In this document: piece by piece, positions 9,435 to 23,413 of the stretch
Position numbering within the stretch: the first letter of the stretch is position 1
Layout: each line of letters opens with the position of its first letter
Source: Planctomycetota bacterium
GTDB lineage: Bacteria; Planctomycetota; Phycisphaerae; Phycisphaerales; SM1A02
Assembly: GCA_022574595.1 (NCBI GenBank)
Contig: JACZRS010000003.1
Location: 124,001-188,000 of the forward strand
Length of the DNA stretch: 64,000 nucleotides
Direction: 5' to 3'
The notes under the pieces: generated by a model
What the model saw: only the letters and a program-made list of their open reading frames with translations
The model's database searches: none
Told to the model about the DNA's origin: nothing
Translations under genes and position numbers: made by a program

Positions 9435-11585
9435 CTATCCCCAATTTGCGAATAGTATGAGCAGATCGATCGTACTCACTTTGCCATCGCCATCCAGATC
9501 AGCAGGACAGTCGCTTTTTTCCGGGGGTGGGCATGGCCCCCAGTTGTCCAGCAGGGCTGACAGATCCGACAGGCCGACTATACAATCGCCATCGAGATCG
9601 CCCAGCAATGGGCCGGGTCCCCAGCGGGCCCAGTACGCCGAGACCTGCTCACCGGCGACGAGGAACTCGCCCCCGGCGATCAGCTCGCCGTTGTAAACCG
9701 TTAAGGCTCTCACGATAGGGTAGCAGAACTGGAACTGGACGTAGCATCCCTGGATCCCGCTGCCCAGGGGCGACCAGCTCAGGCCATCCCAGCGGGCGAT
9801 GTAGTTGGCCCGCGTACCGCCGGCGGTGGTGAACTGGCCCCCGGCGATCAGCTCGCCGTTGTACACGGTCAGGGCATGCACGAAGCCCCAGCCTCCGCTC
9901 ATCCCGTTGCCCAGGGGCGACCAGCTGGCGCCGTCCCAGCGGGCGATATAGTTGACTTCCGTCCCGCCCGCGGAGGTGAATTGGCCCCCGGCGATCAGCT
10001 CGCCGTTGTAGACGGTCAGACCAAACACATTGCCTGTCCCACTTCCCAGGGACGACCAACTGGTGCCGTCCCAGCGGGCGATGCGGCTAGCCGGCATCCC
10101 GCCGGCGGTGCTGAAGAAGCCCCCGGCGATCAACTCGCCGTTATAGATGGTCAGGGCCTTGACATGGTTGCTCATCCCGCTGCCCAGGGGCGACCAGCTC
10201 GCCCCGTCCCAGCGGGCGATCTTGTTGGCCGGTGTCCCGCCGGCGGTGGTGAATGTGCCTCCGGCGATCAGTTCGCCGTTGTACACGGTCAGCGCCCACA
10301 CGGAGTCGTTCATCCCGCTGCCCAGGGGCGACCAGGATTTTCCGTCCCAGCGGGCGATGCGGTTGGCCTCCGTCCCGCCGGCAGTGGTGAAACCGCCGCC
10401 AGCGATCAGCTCGCCGTTGTAGACGGTCAGGGCAAACACAGTGCCGCTCATCCCACTGCCCAGGGGCGACCAGTTCGTGCCGTCCCAGCGGGCGATGCCG
10501 ATGACCGGCGTCCCGCCGGCGGAGTTGAAGTCGCCTCCAGCGATCAGCTCGCCGTTGTACACCGCGAGGTCAGTAACGATAGGGGAGCATTCCCCCTTGC
10601 CTGGCCCCTGCAAGCATCCGCCAATCCCGCTGCCCAGGGGCGACCAGCTCGTCCCGTCCCAATGGGCGATGTTGCTGACGGTCGTCCCGCCGGCGGTGCC
10701 GAACCGGCCTCCGGCGATCAGCTCGCCGTTGTACACCGTCAGGGTGCGCACGGATGTGAATTGCCCCCCTGGCATCCCGCTGCCCAGGGGCGACCAGGAT
10801 TTGCCGTCCCAGCGGGCGATGCGTTCGGCCGGCATCCCGCCGGCGGTGGTGAAGGAGCCGCCGACGATCAGCTCGCCGTTGTAAATGGTCAGAGCGAGCA
10901 CACTGCCGCCGCTCATCCCGCTCCCCAGTGACGACCAGGTAGCGCCGTCCCAGCTTGCAATGGTGAACCCGCCCCCGGCGATCAGCTCGCCGTTGTACAC
11001 GGTCAGGGCCGACACGCCGCCGATCATCCCGCTGCCCAGGGGCGACCACTGTGCGCCGTCCCAGCGGGCGATGTGGTTGGCCTCGGTCCCGCCTGCGGTG
11101 GTGAAGTTGCCCGCAGCGATCAGCTCGCCGTTGTACACGGTCAGGGCCAAAACGCCGCTGTTCATGCCGCTGCCCAGGGGTGACCAGGTGGTGCCGTCCC
11201 AGCTGGCGATGTAGTTGGCCTCGGTCCCGCCTGCGGTGGTGAAGGAGCCCCCGGCGATCAGCTCGCCGTTGTACACGGTCAGCGCGTAGACCCAAGGGTA
11301 CTCGCCGCCCATCTCTCTGCCCAGTGCTGACCAGGTGGTGCCGTCCCACTTGGCGATGTGGTTGGCGAACACGTCGCCCGCGATAGTGAATTCGCCGCTC
11401 ACGTACAGGGCCGGGCCGGTGCCGTCGTCATAGACCGCCGCAGCGTACCCCCCATAGCCGTTCAACCCCGGCACACCCTGACCCGGTAGCCACTGTTCAG
11501 TGCATTGGGCTGAAACCGGTTGCGTGGCGAAGAAAACGGCAATGAGAATTACGAAAAGTCTTTGAAAATGACGAATCGTGTACAT
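9435..11585 (-). CDS. Large secreted repeat protein (twelve ~48-aa repeats) with dockerin-like tail
   Basis: 716 residues. The start at 11585 has GGGAGG upstream and yields a clean signal peptide (MYTIRHFQRLFVILIAVF..., cleavage after PVSA). About twelve copies of a 45-56-residue repeat follow: IARWDG.SWSPLGSGM, a variable part, then ALTVYNGELIAGG.FTTAGG. The repeat is delta-60/kelch-like and probably forms one or two beta-propellers; repeats 6 and 12 carry longer insertions with a Cys pair. The C-terminus has two dockerin-like loops (GDLDGDCIVGLSDLSALLDN and CPADLDGDGKVSTIDLL) and ends FANWG. GC content is above that of neighbouring genes. Its promoter and leader are duplicated at 23 kb. Function unknown; probably cell-surface. 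Confidence 0.85.
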   Translation of the reverse strand: MYTIRHFQRLFVILIAVFFATQPVSAQCTEQWLPGQGVPGLNGYGGYAAAVYDDGTGPALYVSGEFTIAGDVFANHIAKWDGTTWSALGREMGGEYPWVYALTVYNGELIAGGSFTTAGGTEANYIASWDGTTWSPLGSGMNSGVLALTVYNGELIAAGNFTTAGGTEANHIARWDGAQWSPLGSGMIGGVSALTVYNGELIAGGGFTIASWDGATWSSLGSGMSGGSVLALTIYNGELIVGGSFTTAGGMPAERIARWDGKSWSPLGSGMPGGQFTSVRTLTVYNGELIAGGRFGTAGGTTVSNIAHWDGTSWSPLGSGIGGCLQGPGKGECSPIVTDLAVYNGELIAGGDFNSAGGTPVIGIARWDGTNWSPLGSGMSGTVFALTVYNGELIAGGGFTTAGGTEANRIARWDGKSWSPLGSGMNDSVWALTVYNGELIAGGTFTTAGGTPANKIARWDGASWSPLGSGMSNHVKALTIYNGELIAGGFFSTAGGMPASRIARWDGTSWSSLGSGTGNVFGLTVYNGELIAGGQFTSAGGTEVNYIARWDGASWSPLGNGMSGGWGFVHALTVYNGELIAGGQFTTAGGTRANYIARWDGLSWSPLGSGIQGCYVQFQFCYPIVRALTVYNGELIAGGEFLVAGEQVSAYWARWGPGPLLGDLDGDCIVGLSDLSALLDNWGPCPPPEKSDCPADLDGDGKVSTIDLLILFANWG

Positions 11586-11717
11586 AGCTAGGCCTCCCAT
11601 TTGTCTCGAGGCCTCACGCCGGTCGCCTGCCATAGGTCCATGGCCGCCCCCGGATGGCAGGTGCCTCCGTGTCGGCCGGACGGTAACAGTCTACCAAAGA
11701 CTTATCCTTGTTGTCAA
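11586..11717 (-). promoter_or_regulatory. Promoter and structured 5' leader of the repeat-protein gene
   Basis: Read on the minus strand: TTGACA (11712-11717), an 18-bp spacer and TAGACT (11688-11693) form a good sigma-70-type promoter. The leader then contains a perfect 8-bp hairpin, CCTGCCAT (11654-11661) with ATGGCAGG (11626-11633), whose 20-nt loop holds the GGGGGCGGCCAT core (11640-11652). GGGAGG just before the ATG at 11585 is the ribosome-binding site. The same promoter and much of the leader recur at 23.03-23.21 kb, and the core recurs before the gene at 3195. The conservation suggests a cis-acting RNA element; I do not recognise it as a named riboswitch class. Confidence 0.6.
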
Positions 11718-11808
11718 GCAAAATCACGACCAATTCTGATCCCGATGGAATCGGGACAGGTGCAATCGGGACGGCTTTATGGCCTCTCAAGCCTAAACAG
11801 GCCGTTCA

Positions 11809-11916
11809 TTAACCCCAATTTGCGAAGAGCAATAGCAGATCGCTTGTGTTTGCTACATTATCACCATTTAGATCAGCAGGACACTCGCCTTTTTCCGTAT
11901 GAGAGATGGTACCCAA
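11809..11916 (-). pseudogene. Orphan dockerin-like C-terminal tail, in frame with the upstream cytochrome
   Basis: The 35 codons directly after the stop of the decahaem gene, in the same frame, encode a spacer and then GECPADLNGDNVANTSDLLL, LFANWG and a TAA. This is the dockerin-like tag that ends five intact proteins in the window. It has no start codon or signal of its own. Either it is the remnant tail of the cytochrome, cut off by one stop codon (TAA at 11917-11919), or it is a fragment left by a recombination. Readthrough would yield a tagged cytochrome. Confidence 0.7.
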
Positions 11917-14370
11917 TTACTTAGTGGAAATTGGGGACAGTGGAGCTGTTGAACCTAACGAAAGACGTGCGAATCCAGCATGATAGTTGTGGCAAGACAG
12001 ACAATTGTCACCTGCCTTGTCGGGTAAATGACATTGGGAACAATTGGATTTGTTGATGGCGTCGAAAGAATGGAGAACTTGGGTTGGATTTGTATGCGAG
12101 TACATCGTCTTCCACTGCCTCGTGTCATCAGCTGCTGAATTGAGTGTGTGACATGAAGTACAGTCGCTAAGGCCGGCAAGGTTCAGGTGTGGCTTGTGAG
12201 TGAAAGTGTTGAGGCGGTGCTTGGCAGACAACCCGTTACTTGCGGTCCAGTTTATCACGTATCGATTTGAATCCCCACCTACCGCTTCAACGCTGTGACA
12301 CTTCATACATCGGCCCGGCGACTTATATTCAATGGTTTCGCGTCCAATCTCGTCGAATATTGACCTGGTAGTATTAGGAACGGCGGTACTGCGTGCGTCG
12401 GCAGTTACATCAAGCCAAGCACGAAGAAACGTGTCTGCGTGTCCAGTTGGACGGTATCGAAGCGAAAAGTCGTTATCATCTATATGCCACTGCCCAACGG
12501 TAGCGAACTCATTGAGAAGTGATCGCATCCTGCTTAATTCAGCATCTAACGCCTCGTTGGCAGTTGCAGTAAGCGTTTCACCTGGCACATCATCTTCAAG
12601 CAGATCGTCGTCCAGTATATCTTCATCATCAAGTAATTCTTCATCCTGCGCAGCGCCACCTTCCTGGTCGTCGAGCAGGTCATCATCAAGAAGGTCTTCG
12701 TCATCATCAAGAAGATCATCGTCGTCAAGAAGTTCATCATTGTCATCTGCCGGCACAATATCCTTAGGCTTGGCCGGTTCATTGACTTCGTCAATAGCGT
12801 CCGTTGTGGGCAGCGGTCGCTCTCCTGCCTCATAGCGCTGAACATCATTCATCAGGTTAGGTAGCCAAAGTTCCGCAGCAGCACGGAGATTTACCTGCCA
12901 CTGCGTTTCGTTGCTGCGCACACCAAGCGTAGTGTTATCCGGCGCAAGCCCACTCATCGCTGCAAGTTGTCGAGCGGAAATCTTGTCGCCGAGCGCTCGT
13001 GTGAGCCTTGACTCCAGAGCAGGTTGCCCACCTTGTATTAGCTCATACAGTAAACTTTTGATTGCCCACACCAAGCGACCGGCGGCTTCCACCGTTTGCT
13101 CATCCGCTGAGGAAAGATCCGCTAGGCTTGATCCTGATGCGCGTAGAGTGTTCAAGTCTGCTGCGACTTCCTTATCTACCTCGAGCAGAAGGATCATAAA
13201 CCAGGTCATCTCATTCTCATCATCAAATGCATCTGCCGGCCAGGGGTCATTGCCTAGCCAAGTGTGGTGTTGCTCCAGCGTCGTGATCGCCACACTTGGC
13301 AATCTAAGAAAGGCAATTGATGGCTCGGACAGGCCTGCACCATGTATCTCATCCGCATGGTGATGACAGGATGCGCAGCTGGTATCGAAGCCTAGTGTTT
13401 GCATGCGCCTGCCAGCACCATCAGGAATGTGACACGTCGTGCAGTCAATAGGTGAAGTATCAGCGTATTTGTCTTGGCGAAAGTAGTGGCGCAAATGTGT
13501 AACATGATTGAAAGCTATTGATGATCGCTTGACAAATGGATAGTCCGAGGTGAATTCGGGGTGACCGTTGGCAAAGGACGCAAATTGCTGCTGATGACAA
13601 GTCTGACAGCGCGTGTTGTCCATAAAGGTAATGTCGAAGGAGCGACCGCGATGTTCATTGTGGCAGGTCGAACAGGCAATGGATTGCCAGGCGCTATTGT
13701 CATTGCCTGTAAGTTGCCGAGCCGCCCACATACGAATTGGCGTGCCATCTTTGTTGTCTTGGCCCTGCACTGCAACAGCTGAAACCTGTCGTAGGGATTC
13801 GGGCGGAAGATTGTGCGCCAAATTCGGAAACTGCAATATATGGTGACAATTCAGACAACGCTCGGAGTCGCTTTGCAACAATGTGCTTGCAACTGAGGAT
13901 GAATCGAGCATCACTTGATTGTTATGTGCGTCAGCATGACAAGCGGTGCAGTTTTGATCATTAATTCCATGAGAAGCTGAAAGCAATCCAGGCGAAAGAA
14001 ATTCCCGATTCCACGGCCCGAAAGCAAGGATAAGAAGCGCGCCAAGGGTGATTGCGCTAACTCCCCAAACAGTAATCGCACGTTTGGCGCGCAAGCTTCG
14101 TACCGGCTGACAAGTCGGGATTGGTCGAGAGCATTTACCATCAGGCATAGGGCCTTGTTCACACTGCGCGCCACAACTTGCAGCGCGGGTGCAATGCCAG
14201 CGATCACCTCTACGCTGGGGCGCACATTCCGAAGTGCCATGACAACGACCACGATTATCCGGTCCGCGATGACAGGCATCTCCCTCAGCCGCCCAACCAC
14301 ATACCCACTTCTGCGTTGGGCGCTCATATCGACTCTTGTCGTGATCGAATTGTTGTAATTGTTCGATCAC
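11917..14370 (-). CDS. Membrane-anchored decahaem cytochrome c with Cys-rich N-terminal domain
   Basis: 817 residues from a GTG at 14370 that overlaps the stop of the cytochrome b-like gene (GTGA); the frame extends 32 codons further, but inside that gene. Residues 1-95 are a soluble Cys-rich head with nine Cys between residues 24 and 87 and no CxxCH, probably cytoplasmic and possibly metal- or Fe-S-binding. A single membrane helix spans about 98-118. The periplasmic part has ten CxxCH motifs: CTACH, CLNCH, CSTCH, CQTCH, CTTCH, CASCH, CMKCH, CTSCH, CSQCH and CLSCH. The first six and last four are separated by a long helical segment and a linker of aspartate and dileucine repeats encoded around 12595-12740. 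Likely role: quinol- or ferredoxin-linked electron transfer from the membrane to periplasmic cytochromes. Last gene of the operon. Confidence 0.88.
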   Translation of the reverse strand: MIEQLQQFDHDKSRYERPTQKWVCGWAAEGDACHRGPDNRGRCHGTSECAPQRRGDRWHCTRAASCGAQCEQGPMPDGKCSRPIPTCQPVRSLRAKRAITVWGVSAITLGALLILAFGPWNREFLSPGLLSASHGINDQNCTACHADAHNNQVMLDSSSVASTLLQSDSERCLNCHHILQFPNLAHNLPPESLRQVSAVAVQGQDNKDGTPIRMWAARQLTGNDNSAWQSIACSTCHNEHRGRSFDITFMDNTRCQTCHQQQFASFANGHPEFTSDYPFVKRSSIAFNHVTHLRHYFRQDKYADTSPIDCTTCHIPDGAGRRMQTLGFDTSCASCHHHADEIHGAGLSEPSIAFLRLPSVAITTLEQHHTWLGNDPWPADAFDDENEMTWFMILLLEVDKEVAADLNTLRASGSSLADLSSADEQTVEAAGRLVWAIKSLLYELIQGGQPALESRLTRALGDKISARQLAAMSGLAPDNTTLGVRSNETQWQVNLRAAAELWLPNLMNDVQRYEAGERPLPTTDAIDEVNEPAKPKDIVPADDNDELLDDDDLLDDDEDLLDDDLLDDQEGGAAQDEELLDDEDILDDDLLEDDVPGETLTATANEALDAELSRMRSLLNEFATVGQWHIDDNDFSLRYRPTGHADTFLRAWLDVTADARSTAVPNTTRSIFDEIGRETIEYKSPGRCMKCHSVEAVGGDSNRYVINWTASNGLSAKHRLNTFTHKPHLNLAGLSDCTSCHTLNSAADDTRQWKTMYSHTNPTQVLHSFDAINKSNCSQCHLPDKAGDNCLSCHNYHAGFARLSLGSTAPLSPISTK

Positions 14371-15191
14371 CAGGCGCTTCCGATGAATGTATATACTGTT
14401 AGCACATGAGCCGCTGTAACGATCAGTAGCGCATAGGTTAGGGGGATGTGTACGAACAACCAGCACTTAAGCGATCTTTGAGTAGCAAATTGAAAGTCAA
14501 GGTCATCCTTGATCTCCACCAACCGGACAATCTGCGCCAGAAAGTCGCGCTCGGTTGCGTTCAGATAACGCTCCAGAGCATTAAGCTCGTGCAAAAGACG
14601 ATGCCTGTGGCGGCTAACTCCGACAAGATGGGCCAATGTGTTGCACGGACCATGGAAAAATCGGATCAATGTTGATGAATAAAAGTCGGCGATGGTTGGA
14701 GCATTGCTTTGTGTCACGGTTTGCAGCACAAGCTCTTCTGCTTGCTCACGGACTTGTTTGTAATGTAAGGGTATCCGTTCATAAAGAACACTCTCTCCTC
14801 GTCTGGTAAGTCGAGGTGCCGCCGTGCGCGAAAGCAGTATTCCCACAATCCCTGTTCCTGCAACCGCAAGGTATATGACCGCTAGAATAGACTCTAACCA
14901 GCCGTTTGGAACTCGAAACCCGATGTGGACGGCGAATAGCGCCAGAGTCAACCACCCCGCGTAAAGGTGAATCTGCAACCACAACGATGAAGACCCCAGC
15001 GGTAGAAAGGTTAGCAATTTGCGGACGTTGTATGCAGCAAGAAGAATGAACAAGGATGCCAGAGTCCATCCGGAGATGAATGTTGTTTCAATCAGTGTTG
15101 CCAGTGACAGCCACCACGCCAAGAAGATGGCGATCGCAATGACCATGGTTATTCCCACATTAATCCAAAGGCGCGTTGCGAGTCTTTTCAT
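14367..15191 (-). CDS. Membrane cytochrome b-like protein
   Basis: A 274-residue membrane protein with about four N-terminal helices (residues ~8-32, 36-58, 70-94, 98-120) and one near the C-terminus (~245-268). Between them is a cytoplasmic, mostly helical domain rich in Arg, Glu and His (FHGPCNTLAHLVGVSRHRHR). Histidines in helices (LQIHLYAGW, FAVHIGF, FVHIPLTY, TAAHVLTVY) could hold one or two b haems. The start at 15191 is preferred because its ATG overlaps the upstream TGA (ATGA); an ATG at 15203 is possible. It lies between the ferredoxin and decahaem genes and overlaps both, so the three are translated together. Likely the membrane step between the Fe-S protein and the decahaem cytochrome. 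No exact family is assigned. Confidence 0.75.
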   Translation of the reverse strand: MKRLATRLWINVGITMVIAIAIFLAWWLSLATLIETTFISGWTLASLFILLAAYNVRKLLTFLPLGSSSLWLQIHLYAGWLTLALFAVHIGFRVPNGWLESILAVIYLAVAGTGIVGILLSRTAAPRLTRRGESVLYERIPLHYKQVREQAEELVLQTVTQSNAPTIADFYSSTLIRFFHGPCNTLAHLVGVSRHRHRLLHELNALERYLNATERDFLAQIVRLVEIKDDLDFQFATQRSLKCWLFVHIPLTYALLIVTAAHVLTVYTFIGSAW

Positions 15192-16894
15192 CGATTCACC
15201 CACTTCGCAAGAGCCTCATGATCGGTCATATCGATCCGAACCAGCGCATCATGCGGGCACGCTCTTTGACAAGCGGGTCCGCCAAGTTGATCTGAACAGA
15301 GATCGCACTTGGTCGCTTTGGCAATAGGCAGGTTAGTACTCTCTTCAAGCACAACGCGCCCCTTATTATCTGTGATCTCCACCATACGGATGTTGTTGTA
15401 GGGACAACTGTTGGCGCATGTAGAGCAACCAATGCAGGTCAAGTCATTGATCACAACTTGCCCACCTTGTGGATCGCGGTGGATTGCTCCTGTCGGGCAG
15501 CCGATCATGCAAACCGGGTCGGCGCAGTGCATGCATGCGTTGGCGACCATGTAATGATCAAACGTCGGACCGTGCCGCACGAAGCGCGGATTGTTATCAT
15601 GAGTATCGGCGCAGGCCCGGACACAATCGTCACAGCGTGTACATCGATCGAGGTCAATGAGCATCGCCGCAGTGCCATTCATGAAGCGATTTTCGACTAT
15701 GAACTCGAGTAAGCCTGTGTCAATCTCTGTCTGTGATTGCACACTATGATCGATTGAAACCTGATCTGGCTTTTGATGTGCTCGGTGGCGTTGAGCTACT
15801 GATAGCACAAATTGTTCCACGGTTACAGTCGGAATCCGTAGCACATCCACGTATCCAACAGCCCTCAATGTCGAGCGTAAAGGGACTGATTGCTCAATGT
15901 TAGCACTGTCGACTATCTCGTCGAATCCGAAAACGTGGCCTCGCCCGAGATAGCTCATAGTTCGTTCGCCATTGCCGAAGCGGCAACTCTGGCGCGCAAA
16001 TCCCGCACGAATAAGAATCACGCCATTGGGATAATTACCTTCTTGGGCAATGATCGGTTCATGTGCTAGCCGCCGCGCAGGATCGGCCTCCGCGATCTTT
16101 TTATATGATGCGTACCAATCGAACTCGCCGTAGGTCTCGAAAACTGTCTGCTCGGCAACGTTAGCTAGCTGTTCTTCCGTGAGATGACTGAAGATAGGCG
16201 TGGAACGTAGATGCGATGACAAACTGCGCTCTCGGTAAAGGCGATCAACGTGCTCGCGCAATTCAGTTGCTCGACGGCGCAGATCTCTAAAACCCTGCCA
16301 GCGCAGTTCCAGAAGTTCACACTCAGTATCGGCAAAGAGGGTGGCAGATCGGGGGATCCGCGAGAGAGCAGCAAGTTCGCCAAAAAATTCGCCTGCGCTA
16401 ATACATACAGTTTGGCTGCCCTCGAGGATTCTTGGAACATCTTGAAGGAACACACGAGTGTCGGTGCCGGTTCCACGACGAGCTGCGAGCGCTTTTGTGT
16501 CATAGCCTGACAGGTCGCGTTGCTCCACGCCCCGGTGGTTGGTCCACAACTGGGCCACGGCCTGAAAGACACCCTTTTTCTGCGACTTCTTGCGACCGAG
16601 GACTTCTTCGGGAAGCTTGTCCAAAGCTACACGCACATCTCCTTGCATAATAAAAAACAAGGAATTGCCGTAATCACCTTCGCGAACGATGATGTCGCCT
16701 GGATTGTAACGTTCGATTCGACAGTCATTTAGAATGATGTCATGTAGCGGTGTGGACGGGGGGAATGAACTTGCGTTGATCGCAGAGAACGGCTCCATGT
16801 CAAGCACTCGGCGGACATCGGCATCTGTCATCTCAGGCCCGAAGGGCACATCCCATCGCTTGGGTCGTTGGACGGCCATCGCTGTGTCGGCCAT
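15188..16894 (-). CDS. Double cyclic-nucleotide-binding domain fused to a polyferredoxin
   Basis: 568 residues, cytoplasmic, no signal peptide. Residues ~40-215 form a Crp-type cyclic-nucleotide-binding domain with a classical phosphate-binding cassette near residue 167 (FGELAALSRIPRSATLFAD), including the Gly-Glu and Arg that contact the phosphate. Residues ~230-390 form a second, more degenerate copy (GHVFGFDEIVD...VPLRSTLRA). Residues ~405-568 are a DMSO-reductase-B/NrfC-like polyferredoxin with four Cys clusters: CTRCDDCVRAC, CMHCADPVCMIGCP, CIGCSTCANSCP and CDLC...CQRACP, enough for four 4Fe-4S centres. AGAGGT lies before the ATG. Known relatives are usually electron-transfer subunits; the nucleotide domains suggest direct allosteric control by cAMP or cGMP, which is inference. 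Overlaps the cytochrome b-like gene. Confidence 0.88.
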   Translation of the reverse strand: MADTAMAVQRPKRWDVPFGPEMTDADVRRVLDMEPFSAINASSFPPSTPLHDIILNDCRIERYNPGDIIVREGDYGNSLFFIMQGDVRVALDKLPEEVLGRKKSQKKGVFQAVAQLWTNHRGVEQRDLSGYDTKALAARRGTGTDTRVFLQDVPRILEGSQTVCISAGEFFGELAALSRIPRSATLFADTECELLELRWQGFRDLRRRATELREHVDRLYRERSLSSHLRSTPIFSHLTEEQLANVAEQTVFETYGEFDWYASYKKIAEADPARRLAHEPIIAQEGNYPNGVILIRAGFARQSCRFGNGERTMSYLGRGHVFGFDEIVDSANIEQSVPLRSTLRAVGYVDVLRIPTVTVEQFVLSVAQRHRAHQKPDQVSIDHSVQSQTEIDTGLLEFIVENRFMNGTAAMLIDLDRCTRCDDCVRACADTHDNNPRFVRHGPTFDHYMVANACMHCADPVCMIGCPTGAIHRDPQGGQVVINDLTCIGCSTCANSCPYNNIRMVEITDNKGRVVLEESTNLPIAKATKCDLCSDQLGGPACQRACPHDALVRIDMTDHEALAKWVNR

Positions 16895-16932
16895 TGTTGT
16901 ACCTCTTCAGAAGGCTTTCTAAAAGTCGTTAG

Positions 16933-18084
16933 TCAGTTCTGAGCCACACCTCGATAATCTGCGACAATAGGGAGAAGCGAATCAATCGCCGCGAGATCCG
17001 ACCCGTCGTGCTGGTTTGCGAACGCCTTGGTTGCTTGGGAAACCGCATCAGCAACATCGATAAGGCTAGTGAGGCTGGATAGGGAAATCTTCAACTTACC
17101 GGCATGCTGTGGTTTATCTCCAGCTTCACGGCGTGGAACCGCAGTTAATGCTGTAGCTACTTGGGAAATAGAATGAGCTGACTGAATTTTATCGAGTTTC
17201 TTAAGTACGTTGTTGACTCGCCTCATCATTGCACTGAGATATTTACCCTTTTTCTCCGCCTTGGCAAGTGCTCGTAAACTGAACTCAAGATCAGTCAGGT
17301 GGCCTACTACGAACAGCAAACGCCGACGATCTGCTGTTGCTTGTCGATTCTTTTGATCCGGCGAATAGAAATAGTTATGCCGAACTTCACCTTGAGACCA
17401 CGCGACAAGCTCGAATGCGCTCCCAGCCGGATGCCCTCCTACGTTGACGAGCGATTCATTGGGAACGGTGTGGCATGTATAGCAGTTCTTGGCGATGCGA
17501 TAAACCTGAGCCGACCGCAACATGCCCGCTTTGTCGCACGCTTCCAAACGTGTGGTCTTGTGTTCCGCCGTTTCGTTATCGATATTGAATTCCTTACCTC
17601 CGTAGTCTTTGTGAACGTCAATCCAGTCTTGCGCGGGGCCGTGGCACGATTCGCAAGAGACCCCTGCAAACGGCTTGGCTGCCTCATCCTTCCATCTCGA
17701 GGTGTAATGACACGTCAAGCACAGATCATTTCGCTTGATCCCCTTGGTATAGCCCATTTTCTTGGCAATTTCCTTGGCCTTTGCGTTGCGGTGCATTGTG
17801 CTCCAAGTTGCAAAATGCGTCGATTGTTTCCACGCTGCAAACTCCGATGCGTGACATTCGCCGCAAGCATTTGCACCAGAGATTTTTGACAGACTGGCCT
17901 TCACATCATCCTGAGATACCTGTGGCAGAATAGCGAAGTCAAAAGAAGATGCGCTGTTGTGTTCTATGTTTGGATCTGCCAGCGCCATTGCGGCACCACC
18001 GATGATGCACGCAATGATTAACATTGCAACAAATGCGCTACAGAAATACGGTCCAAGAACAATCGATGTGCAGGTCTTCTTCAT
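16933..18084 (-). CDS. Secreted tetrahaem cytochrome c (c554-like)
   Basis: 383 residues from 18084, giving a signal peptide (MKKTCTSIVL...ends near MALA). An in-frame ATG at 18111 would add nine residues and overlap the upstream gene. Four CxxCH motifs are visible, CGECH, CLTCH, CESCH and CYTCH, with spacing and context (ACGECHASEFAAWKQSTHF; SCESCHGPAQDW) typical of the cytochrome c554 family, which carries four haems. The C-terminal third lacks Cys and looks helical. It probably shuttles electrons in the periplasm between the decahaem protein and the porin-associated cytochrome. It lies 19 bp after the reductase gene in the same operon. Confidence 0.87.
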   Translation of the reverse strand: MKKTCTSIVLGPYFCSAFVAMLIIACIIGGAAMALADPNIEHNSASSFDFAILPQVSQDDVKASLSKISGANACGECHASEFAAWKQSTHFATWSTMHRNAKAKEIAKKMGYTKGIKRNDLCLTCHYTSRWKDEAAKPFAGVSCESCHGPAQDWIDVHKDYGGKEFNIDNETAEHKTTRLEACDKAGMLRSAQVYRIAKNCYTCHTVPNESLVNVGGHPAGSAFELVAWSQGEVRHNYFYSPDQKNRQATADRRRLLFVVGHLTDLEFSLRALAKAEKKGKYLSAMMRRVNNVLKKLDKIQSAHSISQVATALTAVPRREAGDKPQHAGKLKISLSSLTSLIDVADAVSQATKAFANQHDGSDLAAIDSLLPIVADYRGVAQN

Positions 18085-18103
18085 AGGATGTTTGCTTTCA
18101 AAT

Positions 18104-19366
18104 CTATGCATGGAGCTCCAATGGTCCCTTGGGAATACATATACAAGCCAGACACGATCCTTCCTCAGTCTCAAAGCCGGGTTCTGTAGTATACTCTATG
18201 TCGCCTGAGCGAATAGCTGTCAAACAGGTTCCGCAGTTGCCGGCTCGGCACCCGAAGTCTATGGCCACATCGTTCATCTCAGCAAAATCGAGCAGCGAAT
18301 CGGCCTCAGGGTCCCACTGGCAGGTCTTTGAAGACTGTGTGAAAGTGACATCAAATGTCTCAATTCCCTCAGCACGCTTCTCGGGTGCACGTAGCTTTTT
18401 GACCGTTGCTGGTCCAAACGATTCATAGTGTACGCGACTCGAAGGCACGCCCCAAGTGTCGAGATCCGATGTCAAAGCGGCCATCATCGGAGGCGGCCCA
18501 CAAATGAAGAAGTCGTAATTGTTGGAGGGCAACACACGCCGCATAAGATCTACGCTAACCCGGGCGGCATGATGGTAGTGAAGATCGCTTTGGTCAATCC
18601 CATCACGCGGATCGCTATAACACACATGAAGGTGAATATGGTCATGCTGGATATTCAGTTGCTTTAAGTGCTCGGCCATAATATGTTCATCGCTGTTGCG
18701 TACACCATAGAAAAACCATGTCTCGCGCGTGGAGTCGCTCTGTGCGATGGCATTGAGCATGCTGAGCATTGGTGTAATGCCCACTCCGCCCCCGATGAGA
18801 ACTACAGGTGCGTCGGCGGACATGTCGAGGAAGAAGTGCCCCGCAGGCGCCTTGACATCAAGAATGTCTCCTTCATTGATTTGTTCGTGGAAGTGGCTCG
18901 ACACCAGTCCAGGCGGGGCCTGGGGATTGTCACGAGGCGGTGGTATCCGCTTGATTGTGACGCGGTAATGAGGGTTGTCTGGTGAATCGGAAAGTGAGTA
19001 GCAACGGATCAGGGGCTTACTCTGATGTTGCAGGTGCAGTTCGAAGGTGAGATACTGTCCGGGTTTGAACCATGGGATGGCTTTCTGATCGTGGGGCACG
19101 AGATAAAAGGAACAGATTCCGCCTCCCTCATCGACTTTTCGCTTGACCTCGAATTTGCGATATCCCTGCCAAGTGTGTGCAGACTGCTCAAGCTCAGCGC
19201 GATTCCGCTGCGCTGCCCCAACGCGATGTCTCATCAAGTCAACCACCAGGTTCCGCCGCTGCACATCGTTGATAGTTCGGCGTAAAGTTCCGTACAGCGC
19301 TACCATGCCTTGTGCCGCTATAAGCACAACTATGATCACGCCTAAGATCCAGAGAATTTCCACCAT
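18104..19366 (-). CDS. Membrane-anchored FAD/NAD reductase with C-terminal 2Fe-2S domain
   Basis: 420 residues. The start at 19366 has AAGAAGG 8 bp upstream; an ATG at 19393 is possible. An N-terminal helix (ILWILGVIIVVLIAAQGM) anchors it. Residues ~75-180 form a ferredoxin-reductase FAD domain (KPGQYLTFELHL; RCYSLSD near 118). Residues ~183-310 are the NAD(P) domain (GGGVGITPMLSML near 189; CGPPPMM). The C-terminus is a plant-type 2Fe-2S domain (CRAGNCGTC near 370 plus a downstream Cys). The architecture resembles NqrF and phenol-hydroxylase/benzoate-dioxygenase reductases. It should take electrons from NAD(P)H or deliver them to it. In this operon it is the plausible entry or exit point of the electron chain. 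Confidence 0.9.
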   Translation of the reverse strand: MVEILWILGVIIVVLIAAQGMVALYGTLRRTINDVQRRNLVVDLMRHRVGAAQRNRAELEQSAHTWQGYRKFEVKRKVDEGGGICSFYLVPHDQKAIPWFKPGQYLTFELHLQHQSKPLIRCYSLSDSPDNPHYRVTIKRIPPPRDNPQAPPGLVSSHFHEQINEGDILDVKAPAGHFFLDMSADAPVVLIGGGVGITPMLSMLNAIAQSDSTRETWFFYGVRNSDEHIMAEHLKQLNIQHDHIHLHVCYSDPRDGIDQSDLHYHHAARVSVDLMRRVLPSNNYDFFICGPPPMMAALTSDLDTWGVPSSRVHYESFGPATVKKLRAPEKRAEGIETFDVTFTQSSKTCQWDPEADSLLDFAEMNDVAIDFGCRAGNCGTCLTAIRSGDIEYTTEPGFETEEGSCLACICIPKGPLELHA

Positions 19367-19401
19367 ATCACGCGCCTTCTTAAATTTATTCATCCAGCCA
19401 G

Positions 19402-20853
19402 TCAGAATTTGAACTGCAGTTCCACGCGCGCCCCCCACATGTTATCACCTTCTTCGGGAATACCGCCGAAAACATCAAACTGCAAAATAGTATTTTGGCC
19501 CATGGCTTGTTGATATCTGGCGCCGAGCGCCAGCATGTCCTCATTTCCTCCATCGGTGCCTGAGCGCCCTCCCGCCTCGATGATCAATTGCTTTCGAGTG
19601 TGATCGAAGAACATCTGATACCCAAGGGCTGCGCCGACGGACTCATCCGCACGGTTTCCCAGTGCCGCCCCATATTGTCCGATTCCAACCGCTGCAAAGA
19701 GGATACCGGTCCTCCCAAGAGGTCCACCCGCATCCGGTCCGCGCGCCGCCGAAGCAAACTCGTCAATTCCCCAGAAGCCATTGACATAAACCAGGTCTTG
19801 GGAATGTGGAGGCGTCCAGGAGACTTCTCCGAAGAATAAGTATCCATCGCTGACTTCGGGCGATTCACCATTGATTGCGTGTGAACCCAGTACGCGAAAT
19901 GCAGTGTTGAAATGGTCTATTCTTTGTATCGCCCCAGCACCCCAGTATAAGCCGTCAGTGCTATCATCATCATCTTGAATGTAGATTGCATCGAACTGGT
20001 AGGTGCTGGTTGGGAAATCTGACTCCGTGAACAATGCGAACATATTTGTTCCGCCATCCTCATCATTGTTATCCCGATGGATGTTATCCCAGCCGTAAAA
20101 AAAGGTCAGCCTCAAATCGGAGCCACCCTTGGGGACAAGCGTATCGCGCACCAGAGCCACGCCGTCGATTGTGTCGTTGATAAGCAAGCCTTCCTGAAAC
20201 ACTATCGGTTGTCTACCGACGGAAAATCCCCAGTCGTTGCTTGAAAAATCAGAGCGATCGAGATTGGGAAACAACTCACCAAAGTCGCCTTCAAAGAACA
20301 GAGTGGTAACTCTACCGTTGAATTCGTCAAACCAGCCGTCCGCACCAGCGCCGGGTTCAAAGCCATAACCGGTGAAGCGTCCGTCCTGATCCAACGGCCT
20401 CAGCCCGACGAGTAAGCGCTCAGTGCCGGTAAGCTGCAAATTGCCGAATAGATCCAATCGATGAACCCACTCGCTGAATTGGGTGTGTCCATCATCAAAT
20501 GTTTGCAGTGCGCTGCGGTAGGTTCCGTAAACAAGGAAAGAGGGTTGCCACACGGCGCCACCAGGCACTTCAAAGCCGGGATCCAACGTACCGGTCCCGA
20601 GGAATGGAGCACCCAGCTCAAGGATCGGCTTGGGTCTCTGCGGAAATCCTTCGAGTTTCAGTGGGATTGGTTCATCGGGAAATCGGCTGGTGCTTTGCTG
20701 CTCTTGATCTTTATCTTGATTCTGTTCACTGCTCGGTGCATCTTGCCCCAACGCCGCAGTTACAAGGCATCCTAAGGCAAGCCCCAATTGCGCGCAGAAT
20801 ATCCAAGACCGTGCTTTGTACTTATGCGAAATTCTTCGTACCTCTTGCCTCAC
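19402..20853 (-). CDS. Outer-membrane porin-like beta-barrel protein
   Basis: 483 residues from a GTG preceded by GAGGAGAAGG. A signal peptide (ends near ALGQ) is followed by a low-complexity Gln/Ser/Asp linker. The mature part alternates short aromatic and acidic strands (GTYRSALQTFDDG; WGFSVGRQPIVFQEGLLIND; FDVFGGIPEEGDNMWGARVE) and ends in a terminal Phe after LQFK, the usual outer-membrane insertion signal. It resembles alginate-export/OprB-like porins but I cannot name a family. Its place between a five-haem secreted cytochrome and an electron-transfer module suggests a porin-cytochrome conduit across the outer membrane, as in MtrAB-type systems. That is inference from context; a solute porin is the alternative. 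Confidence 0.75.
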   Translation of the reverse strand: MRQEVRRISHKYKARSWIFCAQLGLALGCLVTAALGQDAPSSEQNQDKDQEQQSTSRFPDEPIPLKLEGFPQRPKPILELGAPFLGTGTLDPGFEVPGGAVWQPSFLVYGTYRSALQTFDDGHTQFSEWVHRLDLFGNLQLTGTERLLVGLRPLDQDGRFTGYGFEPGAGADGWFDEFNGRVTTLFFEGDFGELFPNLDRSDFSSNDWGFSVGRQPIVFQEGLLINDTIDGVALVRDTLVPKGGSDLRLTFFYGWDNIHRDNNDEDGGTNMFALFTESDFPTSTYQFDAIYIQDDDDSTDGLYWGAGAIQRIDHFNTAFRVLGSHAINGESPEVSDGYLFFGEVSWTPPHSQDLVYVNGFWGIDEFASAARGPDAGGPLGRTGILFAAVGIGQYGAALGNRADESVGAALGYQMFFDHTRKQLIIEAGGRSGTDGGNEDMLALGARYQQAMGQNTILQFDVFGGIPEEGDNMWGARVELQFKF

Positions 20854-20880
20854 TCGAGCCTTCTCCTCGGGTTACTCTAA

Positions 20881-22872
20881 CTAGTGCTGTGTCTCTGGAC
20901 CTTGATCAACATCGATCGTGATGTTCTTCTCCCACACTACTATGTGTCCCTCTCTGATTCCATCAGCCAACTGTCGCGGCGTCATGTCGTAATCAATTCC
21001 AGCCAGAGTAATCTCGCTGAGTAAGTTGATGGGAATCATTGACGCGATGAGCTTGATGTTGGCGGTATACGGCCCGTTGCCGGTAAGCTGCGATCCCTCA
21101 ACTGTGTAATGCGGCCATCGCTCTTGTAATGGCGCGATGGTTTGTCGATGCTTACGCGCTCCAGCAGGTCGGCCGTAAATGATCGTCGGTCTTGACTCGG
21201 GTCGCAGGAATGGCAAGGGATCTAGCGAATAGTTGATGGGCAGAACTTGCTCGCGCTCTCCACCGCGAACATTGCGCGTTATGAATTTCGACTGTAAACT
21301 AAAGAGTTGATTATCCAGCGGCAACTCGCCGTTGTGAACATACAATGAATGTAGATCACGAACATCACCGTTGGGATCCAGATCGCCGGATTGCATGACA
21401 ACTTTACCTGCACTGTCAGTAACTGTTACCTGCAGGAACACGACTCGCTCAGCATCGAACCCAGTGGGAACCTCGTGGCCATCTGTCCCGTTGCGCACCT
21501 GCACCTTGAACTTGATTCCGGTTTGATCGGCGTTAAGCGTTACGATGTCGCCTAGAACGTAGCCTACTCGGAGAATTGCCACACGCTGCTGCTGACCCCA
21601 AGCGAGCAACTCCAGATTTTCCTGGATTATGTCGCGCGCATCATACCTATCATCAATTGATTCCCAACGCTGGGGAAAGACATAATCTTCCGAGACGGTG
21701 TCCTCAAAGTCATCGGTTCCCCATCCTGCCTTGTGATCGAAGGTCAACCATTCACGAATGGTTGCAAGTCCTTCCACAGTCGGATCGTCCTTCTCTGATT
21801 CTTCTTTTACTGCCTTGGCATTAAGAGGAAAGATGCCGGGATGTATGATTGGATAATCAGGACCGGCAAAGTAGTGATTGGTGATCTTGCGATCGACTGT
21901 TGGTTTGCCACCGATGAATGCAGCCGGCCCTGTTTCATAGCCCGACGCAACTCCAGGCACTACACCCATGTGACAATCCTGGCAGCTCACGCCGCGCCCA
22001 GCCGCAGGTGATTGTTTGTATGAACTAAACGCTTCCTCCAAACGAAAGCCATTCACCAGCGTGACATCATGGCAAGTTCCACAAAATCCCGACTTGTCAA
22101 TCTGAAAGAATTTGATCGCTTCTGTGTGAATCTTGCGCCCGGCTTTGTCAGGCGTGGTAACGACACTATATATGTCGGGATTGGCCAATACGCGCGCAAG
22201 CTCATCGTTGCCGGTAGGGCCATAGATTGGTGAGAGAATATCACCTTCGACGATGGCAATGCGTCCGCTGATTTTCCCGTATTCTTTGTTGACGCGATGA
22301 CAAACGATGCACGTGACACCCTCGCGCGAGGTCGGATGACGATCGATGTTGCTCATGAACGCTGGCTCACCCAGATTCATGCCGACAGGAGAATGGCAGC
22401 GAATGCAGAAGTCACCGTTTGTACCGTTGGTCAGCATAAGAATTGTCCCGTGCATCGCGTTGAAGACAGGGCTCATTTGTGCGTATGCATGCTGCGAGAC
22501 TGACCATTCTCGATACTGCTTTGGATGGCAGCTTGAGCACGCTGTCGCAGATGGGAATCGATTCGCCAGAAACACCTCAGCGTGCAATTGATTCGCCGTC
22601 TCCTGAACGACTTGATCCTTGTTATCCTTTTCTGGATCGTCACCTTCATCGAGAAGATCATCGTCATCACCAAGAAGATCGTCATCATCATCAAGGAGGT
22701 CATCATCCTGATCCTGAGCATCTTGCCCCTGAACTCCGCCTGATCCATCTAACCCTGTAGAAGGAACCAGCGATGCACCGACCATAGCTATTCCTAAAAG
22801 ACAAATCATTATCAAAGATGGTGCGGCTAATGCCAGTGCGCATCGGTCAGTTCGCATGATCTTTTCCTCCAT
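20881..22872 (-). CDS. Secreted pentahaem cytochrome c with C-terminal beta domain
   Basis: 663 residues; the start at 22872 has GGAGGG upstream, and a second ATG at 22857 is equally well served. The N-terminal signal or anchor (LIMICLLGIAMVGASLVP) is followed by an aspartate and dileucine linker encoded at ~22635-22720, like the one in the decahaem cytochrome. Five CxxCH motifs follow: CSSCH, CIRCH, CIVCH, CGTCH and CQDCH. The order CSSCHPKQYREW...CIRCHSP...CIVCHR resembles c554/MtrA-like multihaem domains. From about residue 420 a haem-free, probably beta-sandwich part follows (GIKFKVQVRNGTDGHEVPTG; VTVTDSAGKVV). It may sit at the outer membrane next to the porin. First gene of the seven-gene operon. 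Confidence 0.87.
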   Translation of the reverse strand: MEEKIMRTDRCALALAAPSLIMICLLGIAMVGASLVPSTGLDGSGGVQGQDAQDQDDDLLDDDDDLLGDDDDLLDEGDDPEKDNKDQVVQETANQLHAEVFLANRFPSATACSSCHPKQYREWSVSQHAYAQMSPVFNAMHGTILMLTNGTNGDFCIRCHSPVGMNLGEPAFMSNIDRHPTSREGVTCIVCHRVNKEYGKISGRIAIVEGDILSPIYGPTGNDELARVLANPDIYSVVTTPDKAGRKIHTEAIKFFQIDKSGFCGTCHDVTLVNGFRLEEAFSSYKQSPAAGRGVSCQDCHMGVVPGVASGYETGPAAFIGGKPTVDRKITNHYFAGPDYPIIHPGIFPLNAKAVKEESEKDDPTVEGLATIREWLTFDHKAGWGTDDFEDTVSEDYVFPQRWESIDDRYDARDIIQENLELLAWGQQQRVAILRVGYVLGDIVTLNADQTGIKFKVQVRNGTDGHEVPTGFDAERVVFLQVTVTDSAGKVVMQSGDLDPNGDVRDLHSLYVHNGELPLDNQLFSLQSKFITRNVRGGEREQVLPINYSLDPLPFLRPESRPTIIYGRPAGARKHRQTIAPLQERWPHYTVEGSQLTGNGPYTANIKLIASMIPINLLSEITLAGIDYDMTPRQLADGIREGHIVVWEKNITIDVDQGPETQH

Positions 22873-22957
22873 GTTTCACCCTCCGTGATCGGAGCCATCG
22901 GCCGAGACGCGAAGCTTACATTACGCTATGCCTGCTTGGAGTCGTTTCAGCACATGC

Positions 22958-22987
22958 AATGTACCCGGTTACTGCGTGAATTGTCAA
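22958..22987 (-). promoter_or_regulatory. Sigma-70-type promoter of the electron-transfer operon
   Basis: On the minus strand TTGACA (22982-22987) and TACATT (22958-22963) are separated by 18 bp, placing the transcript start about 80 nt before the ATG at 22872. It is the only good promoter I see for the seven-gene operon, whose internal gaps are at most 38 bp and include three overlaps. Confidence 0.6.
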
Positions 22988-23013: not shown

Positions 23014-23206
23014 ATAAAGGCCTGAGAGGCCACAAAGCCGTCTTAATTCCGCTTGTCCCGATTGCACCTGTCCCGATTCCTTCGGGATTGGGATAAGGAA
23101 TGGTCGAGGTTTTTCTTGACTACAAGGACTAGTCCTTGGTAGACTATTACAGTTCTGTCGACACGGAGGCTTCTACTTTACGAGGGTAGCCATGGACATT
23201 CTGCAG
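23014..23206 (+). repeat. Inverted, diverged copy of the 11.6-11.8 kb promoter-leader
   Basis: On the plus strand this region repeats the minus-strand sequence 11.58-11.79 kb: GGCCTGAGAGGCC, CCCGATTGCACCTGTCCCGA, TTGACT (23116-23121), an 18-bp spacer, TAGACT (23140-23145), CGACACGGAGGC, GCCATGGAC and GCAGGCGAC. The spacer holds a perfect 14-bp palindrome, AAGGACTAGTCCTT (23124-23137), which is degenerate in the other copy. Instead of leading to a repeat-protein gene it runs into a cytochrome fragment. Confidence 0.7.
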
Positions 23207-23413
23207 GCGACAGCTGATGATGCGCGGCAGTGGAAGATGATGTACTCGCAAACAGATCCAGCGCAAATTCTTCATACCTTCGACCCCATCAATAAATCCA
23301 ATTATTCGGCTTGTCACGTACCGGAGCAGGCGAGTGATAATTGTTTGTCTTGCCACAACTATCACGCTGGATTCGCAAGTTTCTCGTCGGTTTCAACAGC
23401 GTTTACCAAGTAG
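23192..23413 (+). pseudogene. Truncated copy of the decahaem cytochrome C-terminus fused to the leader
   Basis: An open frame of 73 codons. Its first five codons come from the duplicated leader; from about 23207 it matches the last ~65 residues of the decahaem cytochrome (ADDARQWKMMYSQTDPAQIL against ADDTRQWKTMYSHTNPTQVL), roughly 60% identical by eye. The first CxxCH of that stretch is lost (NYSACH in place of NCSQCH) while CLSCH remains. There is no signal peptide, so haem attachment is impossible in the usual pathway. It is best read as a relic of recombination, although it keeps a promoter-like sequence and an open frame. Confidence 0.75.

What the first reader, a model, noticed from the sequence alone, without database searches (positions are those of the whole stretch)
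11917..22987. A cyclic-nucleotide-sensing, trans-envelope electron conduit in one operon
The sequence shows seven genes read in one direction, with gaps of at most 38 bp and three coding overlaps, behind one good promoter (22958-22987). Their products carry 19 CxxCH motifs (5 + 4 + 10), about four 4Fe-4S clusters, one 2Fe-2S centre, FAD and NAD sites, a likely b-haem membrane protein and an outer-membrane barrel with a terminal Phe. From established families, porin plus multihaem cytochrome is the architecture of MtrAB-type outer-membrane conduits, and the CNB cassette is that of Crp and protein kinase A. The unusual part is that the first CNB copy, with an intact phosphate-binding cassette, is fused directly to the polyferredoxin, so a second messenger could gate electron flow itself rather than transcription. 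I infer a path NAD(P)H - reductase - ferredoxin/cytochrome b - decahaem - tetrahaem - porin and pentahaem, in either direction. I know of no characterised system with this gene set.
Basis: partly seen in the sequence, partly recalled or inferred. Interest (0 to 1): 0.88.

Follow-up and report, generated by a model that had tools for sequence, protein, structure and literature searches.

The report
Messenger-sensing electron relay, PCC4-type operon
Seven neighbouring planctomycete genes encode a chain of iron proteins that probably carries electrons from the cell interior towards its envelope; the gene set was described in 2017 as PCC4, but one subunit also has a domain of the kind that senses cyclic-nucleotide messengers, and related clusters often sit beside a gene for the enzyme that makes them.

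Summary
The seven-gene, 19-haem operon is real. In the best 80 relatives, from about ten phyla, 76 keep g5-g6-g7 in order. What I found no report of: (1) the Fe-S subunit carries two CNB domains, the first keeping its cassette Glu and Arg in 85 of 85 sequences; (2) class III nucleotide cyclase genes lie within 3.6 kb of the cluster in 19 of 84 loci, about 2 expected; (3) a sister cluster, five genomes of one genus, also joins CNB to an NDH-2-like enzyme; (4) the decahaem cytochrome has an N-terminal 2x4-Cys domain, complete in 71 of 77. Against: this genome has no class III cyclase and no other CNB protein; the barrel resembles Occ/MOMP/AlgE channels; 15 of 32 long-flanked loci lack porin and pentahaem homologues. 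Best reading: an NAD(P)H-linked inner-membrane-to-periplasm relay, gated by a cyclic nucleotide in most carriers; the trans-outer-membrane step is unproven.

The parts
20881..22872 (-). g1: pentahaem cytochrome c (663 aa), C554/NapC-like haem domain, haem-free C-terminal half, signal-type N-terminus
   Evidence: 5 CxxCH in 35 of 38 complete homologues; PDB relative 5ze8 'cytochrome c552', query residues 108-310
19402..20853 (-). g2: outer-membrane beta-barrel (483 aa), C-terminal Phe
   Evidence: AF2 mean pLDDT 83.5; Occ/MOMP/AlgE folds, Z up to 27.9
18104..19393 (-). g3: FAD/NAD(P)H reductase with N-terminal hydrophobic anchor and C-terminal 2Fe-2S domain (about 429 aa from ATG 19393; ORF open from 19438)
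   Evidence: PF00970, PF00175, PF00111; hydropathy
16933..18111 (-). g4: tetrahaem cytochrome c554-type (ORF open from 18174)
   Evidence: PF13435 3e-15; 4 CxxCH in 66 of 77 homologues, 3 in the other 11
15188..16894 (-). g5: CNB1 (about residues 52-217, with an insert between its two halves) + degenerate CNB2 + four-cluster ferredoxin of the DmsB/HydN kind (about residues 410-560)
   Evidence: PF00027 and Fer4 models; NCBIfam below-cut-off hits to DmsB, HydN; G172/E173/R182 in 85 of 85
14367..15191 (-). g6: integral membrane protein with two WX3HX13H motifs, predicted two b haems
   Evidence: W75, H79, W248, H252, H266 in 82 of 83 rows (1 gap), H93 in 83 of 83
11917..14370 (-). g7: decahaem cytochrome c with N-terminal 2x4-Cys domain, one hydrophobic segment, acidic linker
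   Evidence: 10 CxxCH in 74 of 75 complete homologues; all 8 Cys in 71 of 77 rows
14110..14328 (-). g7 Cys-rich domain (Y47 to C119 in the 849-aa numbering), before the basic stretch and the hydrophobic segment; cytosolic by inference
   Evidence: AF2 pLDDT 85-98 by blocks over residues 21-120 of the modelled piece; no usable PDB fold match
22958..22987 (-). sigma-70-like promoter match before g1 (weak)
   Evidence: 15 sites found, 11.9 +/- 3.3 expected

Best explanation
A PCC4-type (subgroup II) electron-transfer chain whose cytosolic entry module is gated by a cyclic nucleotide. Proposed path: NAD(P)H -> g3 (FAD, 2Fe-2S) -> g5 (four 4Fe-4S) -> g6 (two b haems across the inner membrane) -> g7 (membrane-anchored decahaem whose 8-Cys domain docks on, or relays from, g5) -> g4 tetrahaem -> g1 pentahaem next to the g2 channel. 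Ligand binding to CNB1 of g5 switches g5 between conformations that do or do not pass electrons. Shown: gene set, motifs, haem counts, conservation, cyclase neighbourhood. Inferred: electron path, outward direction, topology of the Cys domain, gating. Separate odds: PCC4-type inner-membrane-to-periplasm relay 0.85; CNB1 binds a cyclic nucleotide in most carriers 0.65; binding gates electron flow 0.45; electrons actually cross the outer membrane 0.4.
For: Co-conservation in the best 80 relatives: g6 78, g7 76, g4 71, g3 68, g2 38, g1 37. Haem numbers nearly fixed. g6 motifs equal those given for the PCC4 inner-membrane protein, except T for S in SGXXG. CNB1 cassette Glu and Arg 85 of 85; its PDB sequence relatives include PKA-R, PKG, HCN and SthK CNBs. 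Class III cyclases in 19 of 84 loci, in at least six arrangements, ten of them divergent from g3 with 58-437 bp between cyclase and g3 homology; 10 of 10 sampled proteins (nine of the 19, plus L020) pass PF00211. Expected: about 2.1 at the density in 33 carrier genomes, about 0.36 at the density in the 61 planctomycete genomes (57 matches in about 222 Mb, summed by hand). 10 of 12 carriers against 19 of 49 others have a class III cyclase (Fisher 0.009, phylogeny ignored). A sister cluster puts CNB on an NDH-2-like enzyme too, 5 of 5 with intact cassette, all of one genus. RuBisCO in 0 of 12 carriers, which I read as favouring export.
Against: The window's genome (96.4% complete) has no PF00211 cyclase; its only CNB domains are those of g5, and its one CYTH protein is below the class IV cyclase cut-off (34.8 against 57.95 bits). 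The closest full-operon relative G036 also lacks PF00211. CNB2 has no conserved cassette Arg. The barrel has a substrate-channel fold. 15 of 32 loci with at least 8 kb on both sides have no g1 or g2 homologue. He et al. proposed the opposite direction, donor to quinone pool. No binding, redox or localisation data were found. Cyclase neighbours are partly phylogenetically clustered (ten of one type, four verrucomicrobial), so counts are not independent.
Confidence: 0.55

Rival explanations
1. Fe(II)/Mn(II) or other extracellular electron uptake (the He et al. 2017 PCC4 model): electrons enter through the porin and cytochromes and reach the quinone pool or NAD+ through g6, g5 and g3.
For: He et al. 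found PCC4 in Zetaproteobacteria and Hyphomicrobium linked to iron or manganese settings; the contig titled Mariprofundus (L079) has g2-g7, its start being cut by the contig end.
Against: RuBisCO in 0 of 12 carriers among relatives; an NAD(P)H-type reductase and, in the sister clusters, an NDH-2-like enzyme suggest an outward source; moving electrons from ferrous iron to NAD+ is strongly uphill (general knowledge).
Confidence: 0.25
2. A periplasmic NAD(P)H-linked reductase for a soluble small substrate: g2 is a substrate channel, g1 the catalytic pentahaem, and no electron leaves the cell.
For: Barrel models on Occ/OprD, MOMP and AlgE channels, Z 25-28; g1 and g2 travel as a pair (all 17 of the 32 long-flanked loci that have one have both) and are optional; g1 has a NapC/c552-like haem domain plus a large haem-free part.
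Against: No CxxCK catalytic-haem motif in g1, g4 or g7 of the window, nor in 38, 77 and 75 complete homologues; a catalytic site with ordinary CxxCH haems is not excluded. The barrel has no Pfam hit, so its pore is unknown.
Confidence: 0.3
3. The CNB domains are structural or bind another ligand; the cyclase neighbourhood reflects shared regulation, not ligand supply to g5.
For: No PF00211 cyclase and no other CNB protein in this genome; the base-recognition positions of the ten planctomycete-type cyclases look non-canonical (read; the meaning of the positions is recalled).
Against: Glu and Arg of the CNB1 cassette invariant in 85 of 85 while CNB2 has no conserved Arg; three intact cassettes per sister cluster, 5 of 5.
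Confidence: 0.35

Closest known systems
PCC4 gene cluster, subgroup II (He et al. 2017, PMC5566968)
   Same: Porin, 4-, 5- and 10-haem periplasmic cytochromes, IMP with two WX3HX13H, PF13247 Fe-S gene directly upstream of the IMP gene, redox gene upstream of the tetrahaem gene, planctomycetes among the hosts.
   Different: The CNB fusion is not in its main text ('cyclic' 0 occurrences), nor did I see the g7 Cys domain or linked cyclases in the parts read (12 of 19 passages and section 16); its supplement, with domain drawings, was not readable here.
MtrAB / MtoAB / PioAB porin-cytochrome conduits
   Same: A decahaem cytochrome and a barrel encoded together.
   Different: g7 matches no MtrA-type model and has an N-terminal membrane anchor; g1 scores 28.5 bits on TIGR03508 against a cut-off of 192.2; the barrel resembles Occ/MOMP/AlgE channels.
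NADPH oxidase / ferric reductase-type b cytochromes
   Same: Two HX13H pairs in a membrane protein, here encoded with an FAD/NAD(P)H module (the analogy for PCC4 IMPs is He et al.'s).
   Different: No PF01794 hit for g6, and a four-cluster ferredoxin is encoded between the two.
CNB-gated proteins (PKA-R, PKG, HCN, SthK)
   Same: Intact phosphate-binding cassette; PDB sequence matches.
   Different: Here the fused part is a polyferredoxin; CNB1 has an insert between its halves and there is no kinase, channel or HTH hit.

Membership tests
PCC4 subgroup II (He et al. [quoted passage not shown]
   homologues keep 4 (66/77), 5 (35/38), 10 (74/75). Periplasmic location is inferred, not tested
PCC4 subgroup II (He et al. 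2017) | IMP with five TM helices and two WX3HX13H motifs | tested here: met
   motifs W75-H79-H93 and W248-H252-H266; hydropathy segments about 8-44, 36-69, 74-98, 101-129, 244-278 (simple hydropathy only)
PCC4 subgroup II (He et al. 2017) | SGXXG motif on TM4 of the IMP | tested here: inconclusive
   window reads TGIVG; Ser in 73 and Thr in 10 of 83 rows, both Gly in 83 of 83
PCC4 subgroup II (He et al. 2017) | PF13247 Fe-S gene directly upstream of the IMP gene; redox gene upstream of the tetrahaem gene | tested here: met
   g5 PF13247 1.1e-10, 42 bits against cut-off 26.2, then g6; g3 then g4
PCC4 subgroup II (He et al. 2017) | Direct sequence homology to a locus named in that paper | not tested
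   no accession of that paper was looked up; a contig titled Mariprofundus (L079) carries g2-g7
MtrAB-type conduit | MtrA/DmsE-type decahaem family (TIGR03508) | tested here: not met
   g7 no hit; g1 28.5 and g4 20.2 bits against cut-off 192.2
MtrAB-type conduit | 26-strand MtrB barrel sheathing the cytochrome (strand number recalled) | tested here: inconclusive
   model has about 17-19 strands of useful length; best rows Occ, MOMP, AlgE; absence of MtrB from the rows excludes nothing
Cyclic-nucleotide-binding domain (ligand-competent) | Phosphate-binding cassette Gly-Glu ... Arg | tested here: met
   CNB1 85 of 85; CNB2 has no conserved Arg
Cyclic-nucleotide-binding domain (ligand-competent) | Binds cAMP or cGMP | not testable with these tools
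   needs protein; no class III cyclase found in this genome

The most novel reading that the evidence does not exclude
A ligand-gated respiratory branch: a cyclic nucleotide, made by a cyclase encoded next door in many carriers, directly opens or closes electron flow from the NAD(P)H pool to the cell envelope by acting on the ferredoxin subunit (PCC4) or on an NDH-2-like enzyme and the ferredoxin (sister clusters), rather than through transcription.
Probability: 0.42. Interest if true: 0.85.

Novelty: new variant of a known kind. Interest (0 to 1): 0.64.

Why it matters
Control of bacterial electron export and uptake is, to my knowledge, known mainly at the level of transcription. A second messenger acting on the redox protein itself would be a new kind of control, comparable to ligand-gated channels but for electrons. 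The cluster's best 80 relatives carry titles from about ten phyla and 76 of the 80 are metagenome-assembled genomes, so it may be a common, untested way of moving reducing power in uncultured bacteria. The linked cyclases and the NDH-2-like fusion make the idea directly testable.

Tried and rejected
Rfam over the whole window: 0 matches at gathering scores, so no catalogued riboswitch was seen in the operon leader. Foldseek of the g7 Cys piece against PDB: best E 6.9, nothing usable. PDB sequence search with g6 (E up to 1) and g7 (E up to 0.01): none. MtrB did not appear among the 50 rows; this excludes nothing. Ligand supply by a class IV cyclase was weak (TIGR00318 below cut-off). RuBisCO in 1 of 61 genomes (G049), 0 of 12 carriers. 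COX1 is present once in this genome, so oxygen respiration is likely; it does not decide the direction. CxxCK motifs: none.

Literature: searches for CNB + ferredoxin + multihaem + Planctomycetes, CNB domain + multiheme + 4Fe-4S + extracellular electron, and CNB + NDH-2 gave 0 papers with all terms, and two five-term searches gave 0 papers with four terms, in the open PMC library only. One search (three of four terms) listed 8 of 12 papers; none of the 8 held the CNB term. Verrucomicrobial porin-MHC clusters of PMC5615132 (8 of 8 passages) have 8-haem periplasmic cytochromes and at least 20 TM motifs, so they were not equated with this one. Other papers, as passages: PMC5566968 12 of 19 places plus section 16; PMC10734462 12 of 14; PMC6344600 12 of 14; PMC10732223 6 of 6; PMC13264449 4 of 4 plus section 18.

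Dropped or limited before counting: L033 and L036 are the same contigs as L017 and L019; they were removed from my alignments but remain in the 86-locus counts and in the Phe count. The cyclase HMM was built from 18 of the hits, so it is no independent detection; the independent test is PF00211. A 20th cluster member, L084, is only a C-terminal fragment. 48 of 61 g7 N-termini went into the structure job. Of 34 handles, L050 was not held; 19 of the 33 searched were chosen because a cyclase lies beside the cluster, the other 14 from loci where none was seen, which may bias the density; the direct per-locus sum over the 33 is 0.88 expected. A '58/61' in my note was an uncounted estimate and is replaced by the 71 of 77.
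Full report
Seven ORFs on the minus strand, 22872 to 11917, are packed with gaps of at most 38 nt and three short overlaps. Their products are, in order: pentahaem cytochrome (g1), barrel (g2), FAD/NAD/2Fe-2S reductase (g3), tetrahaem c554-type cytochrome (g4), CNB-CNB-polyferredoxin (g5), a membrane protein with four conserved His (g6), and a decahaem cytochrome (g7). g7 most likely starts at 14370 through a GTGA overlap.

It is a conserved unit. The window's genome has one copy. 13 of 61 genomes, the window's own included, match g5 at E 1e-10; 12 of these are CNB-ferredoxins, and G060 matches only through the ferredoxin part. Within this set the seven-gene order is complete in three other genomes (L017, L020, L021) and g3-g7 in two more (L018, L019); L022 has g4 on the other strand. 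In these 80, homologues were found for g6 in 78, g7 in 76, g4 in 71, g3 in 68, g2 in 38 and g1 in 37, many loci being cut by contig ends. 76 of 80 have g5-g6-g7 in order on one strand and 12 have all seven in the window's order; of 32 loci with at least 8 kb on both sides, 17 have g1 and g2 and 15 have neither. Haem numbers are nearly fixed: 5 in 35 of 38, 4 in 66 of 77, 10 in 74 of 75 complete homologues from 86 loci, two of them duplicate contigs. The porin-pentahaem pair is thus an optional module on a fixed core.

It is already described, as a gene cluster. He et al. [quoted passage not shown] g6 has both WX3HX13H motifs (82-83 of 83 rows) and TGIVG where most relatives have SGxxG. Only one other paper in the library holds 'PCC4' together with 'multiheme' and 'porin', and mentions it in passing. 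The main text of He et al. does not contain the word 'cyclic'; its supplement could not be read.

The CNB part. Gly172, Glu173 and Arg182 of CNB1 are invariant in 85 of 85 sequences; CNB2 has no conserved Arg at what I read as the matching place. PDB sequence matches of CNB1 include PKA-R, PKG, HCN and SthK. A clustering of all ORFs of 110 aa or more in 84 loci (1.38 Mb) then turned up class III nucleotide cyclases beside the cluster. Nineteen loci have one within 3.6 kb, in at least six arrangements: divergent from g3 in ten planctomycete loci (58-437 bp to the g3 homology), co-directional before g1 (L041) or g2 (L034), converging on g2 (L065), abutting the end of g7 (L098), downstream of g7 in four verrucomicrobial-type loci (L081, L101, L110, L111), and after g3 in L091 (L084 has a fragment there). 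Sampled proteins pass PF00211 in 10 of 10 cases (nine of the 19, plus the L020 cyclase-kinase), with CHASE2, GAF, 7TMR-DISM or kinase partners in seven of them. In 18 aligned domains both metal Asp, the Asn and the Arg are present (read; their roles are recalled). The 33 searched carrier genomes hold 249 such domains in 166 Mb, so about 2.1 would be expected in the 84 loci. All 33 have at least one class III cyclase, 14 of them chosen from loci without an adjacent one.

Against this, the window's own genome has none, its only CNB domains are in g5, and its CYTH protein falls below the class IV cyclase cut-off. G036, whose cluster is complete, also has none. Either the ligand comes from an unrecognised enzyme, or a cyclase was missed in a 96%-complete assembly, or gating has been lost in this lineage while the cassette has not yet decayed.

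A sister cluster points the same way. In five genomes of another family, all of one genus (L023-L027), a CNB-CNB-ferredoxin with two intact cassettes stands near a pyridine-nucleotide oxidoreductase that carries its own C-terminal CNB, 5 of 5 with an intact cassette. The enzyme looks like NDH-2: PF07992 passes in 5 of 5, the NDH2_C model passes its cut-off in 2 and falls just under it in 3. CNB has thus been joined to two different redox enzymes in related clusters, though the five genomes are one genus and so perhaps one event.

g7 starts with two repeats of four Cys (C56, 65, 75, 81 / 92, 102, 112, 119 in the 849-aa numbering), followed by a basic stretch and the only strong hydrophobic segment, so it should lie in the cytosol (inference). 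All eight Cys are present in 71 of 77 rows; two rows lack all of them and four keep three to five. AlphaFold gives block pLDDT 85-98 over this domain and the following helix, but no PDB fold matches. I infer a metal-binding docking or relay domain for g5.

The barrel. AlphaFold (mean pLDDT 83.5) gives about 17-19 strands of useful length; the best structural matches are MOMP, Occ and AlgE channels, Z 25-28. This does not look like the wide barrel of MtrB (26 strands, recalled). A sheathed multihaem wire is therefore doubtful; a substrate channel serving the pentahaem, or a contact plug, fits as well. No CxxCK motif was found in the cytochromes.

Direction. g3 and the NDH-2-like sister enzyme suggest NAD(P)H as source; 0 of 12 carriers in this order have RuBisCO; a two-b-haem membrane protein fed by NAD(P)H works downhill outward (general knowledge). 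He et al. proposed inward flow for iron oxidisers. I rate outward flow somewhat more likely here; nothing decides it.

Verdict: a known but uncharacterised gene cluster (PCC4-II), with a conserved cyclic-nucleotide module and linked cyclases that I found unremarked in the papers searched. New variant of a known kind; interest 0.64.

Noticed in passing
window 23055-23400 (+) against 11622-12134: Inverted copies: the 3' end of g7 (82%) and the promoter region of the 732-aa gene (77-97%) recur, fused, upstream of the operon on the opposite strand; one CxxCH Cys is lost (read), so it looks like a relic of a second, internally deleted copy.
   Followed up: partly
window 12581-12747 and 22616-22731: g1 and g7 share acidic LLDDDD-type repeats (D4/D5), probably flexible linkers; not checked in relatives.
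   Followed up: no
window 9436-9523 and 11810-11897: 88-nt repeat (76%): the end of the 732-aa gene recurs just after g7, the likely remnant of a second such gene (D6).
   Followed up: no
window 9435-11633 (-): 732-aa protein made of repeats (mostly 138-nt units), propeller-like by my reading; no NCBIfam hit.
   Followed up: no
window 25076-26449 (+): MscS-type mechanosensitive channel gene two genes away from the operon (below-cut-off NCBIfam hits).
   Followed up: no
L023-L027: NDH-2-like enzyme with a C-terminal CNB domain near CNB-CNB-ferredoxin, a b-type-like membrane protein and small multihaem cytochromes.
   Followed up: yes
window 23055-23094 (+); G000 C19, C9, C25: A ~35-40-nt motif of the operon's upstream region recurs at three other places in the genome outside the window.
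   Followed up: no
L063, L069, L094: The g7 Cys domain is lost (L063, L069) or halved (L094) while its flanks stay: a modular domain.
   Followed up: partly
L028, L029 (G060, G048): Ferredoxin-only matches to g5 beside what looks like nitrate-assimilation genes (by eye); not examined.
   Followed up: no
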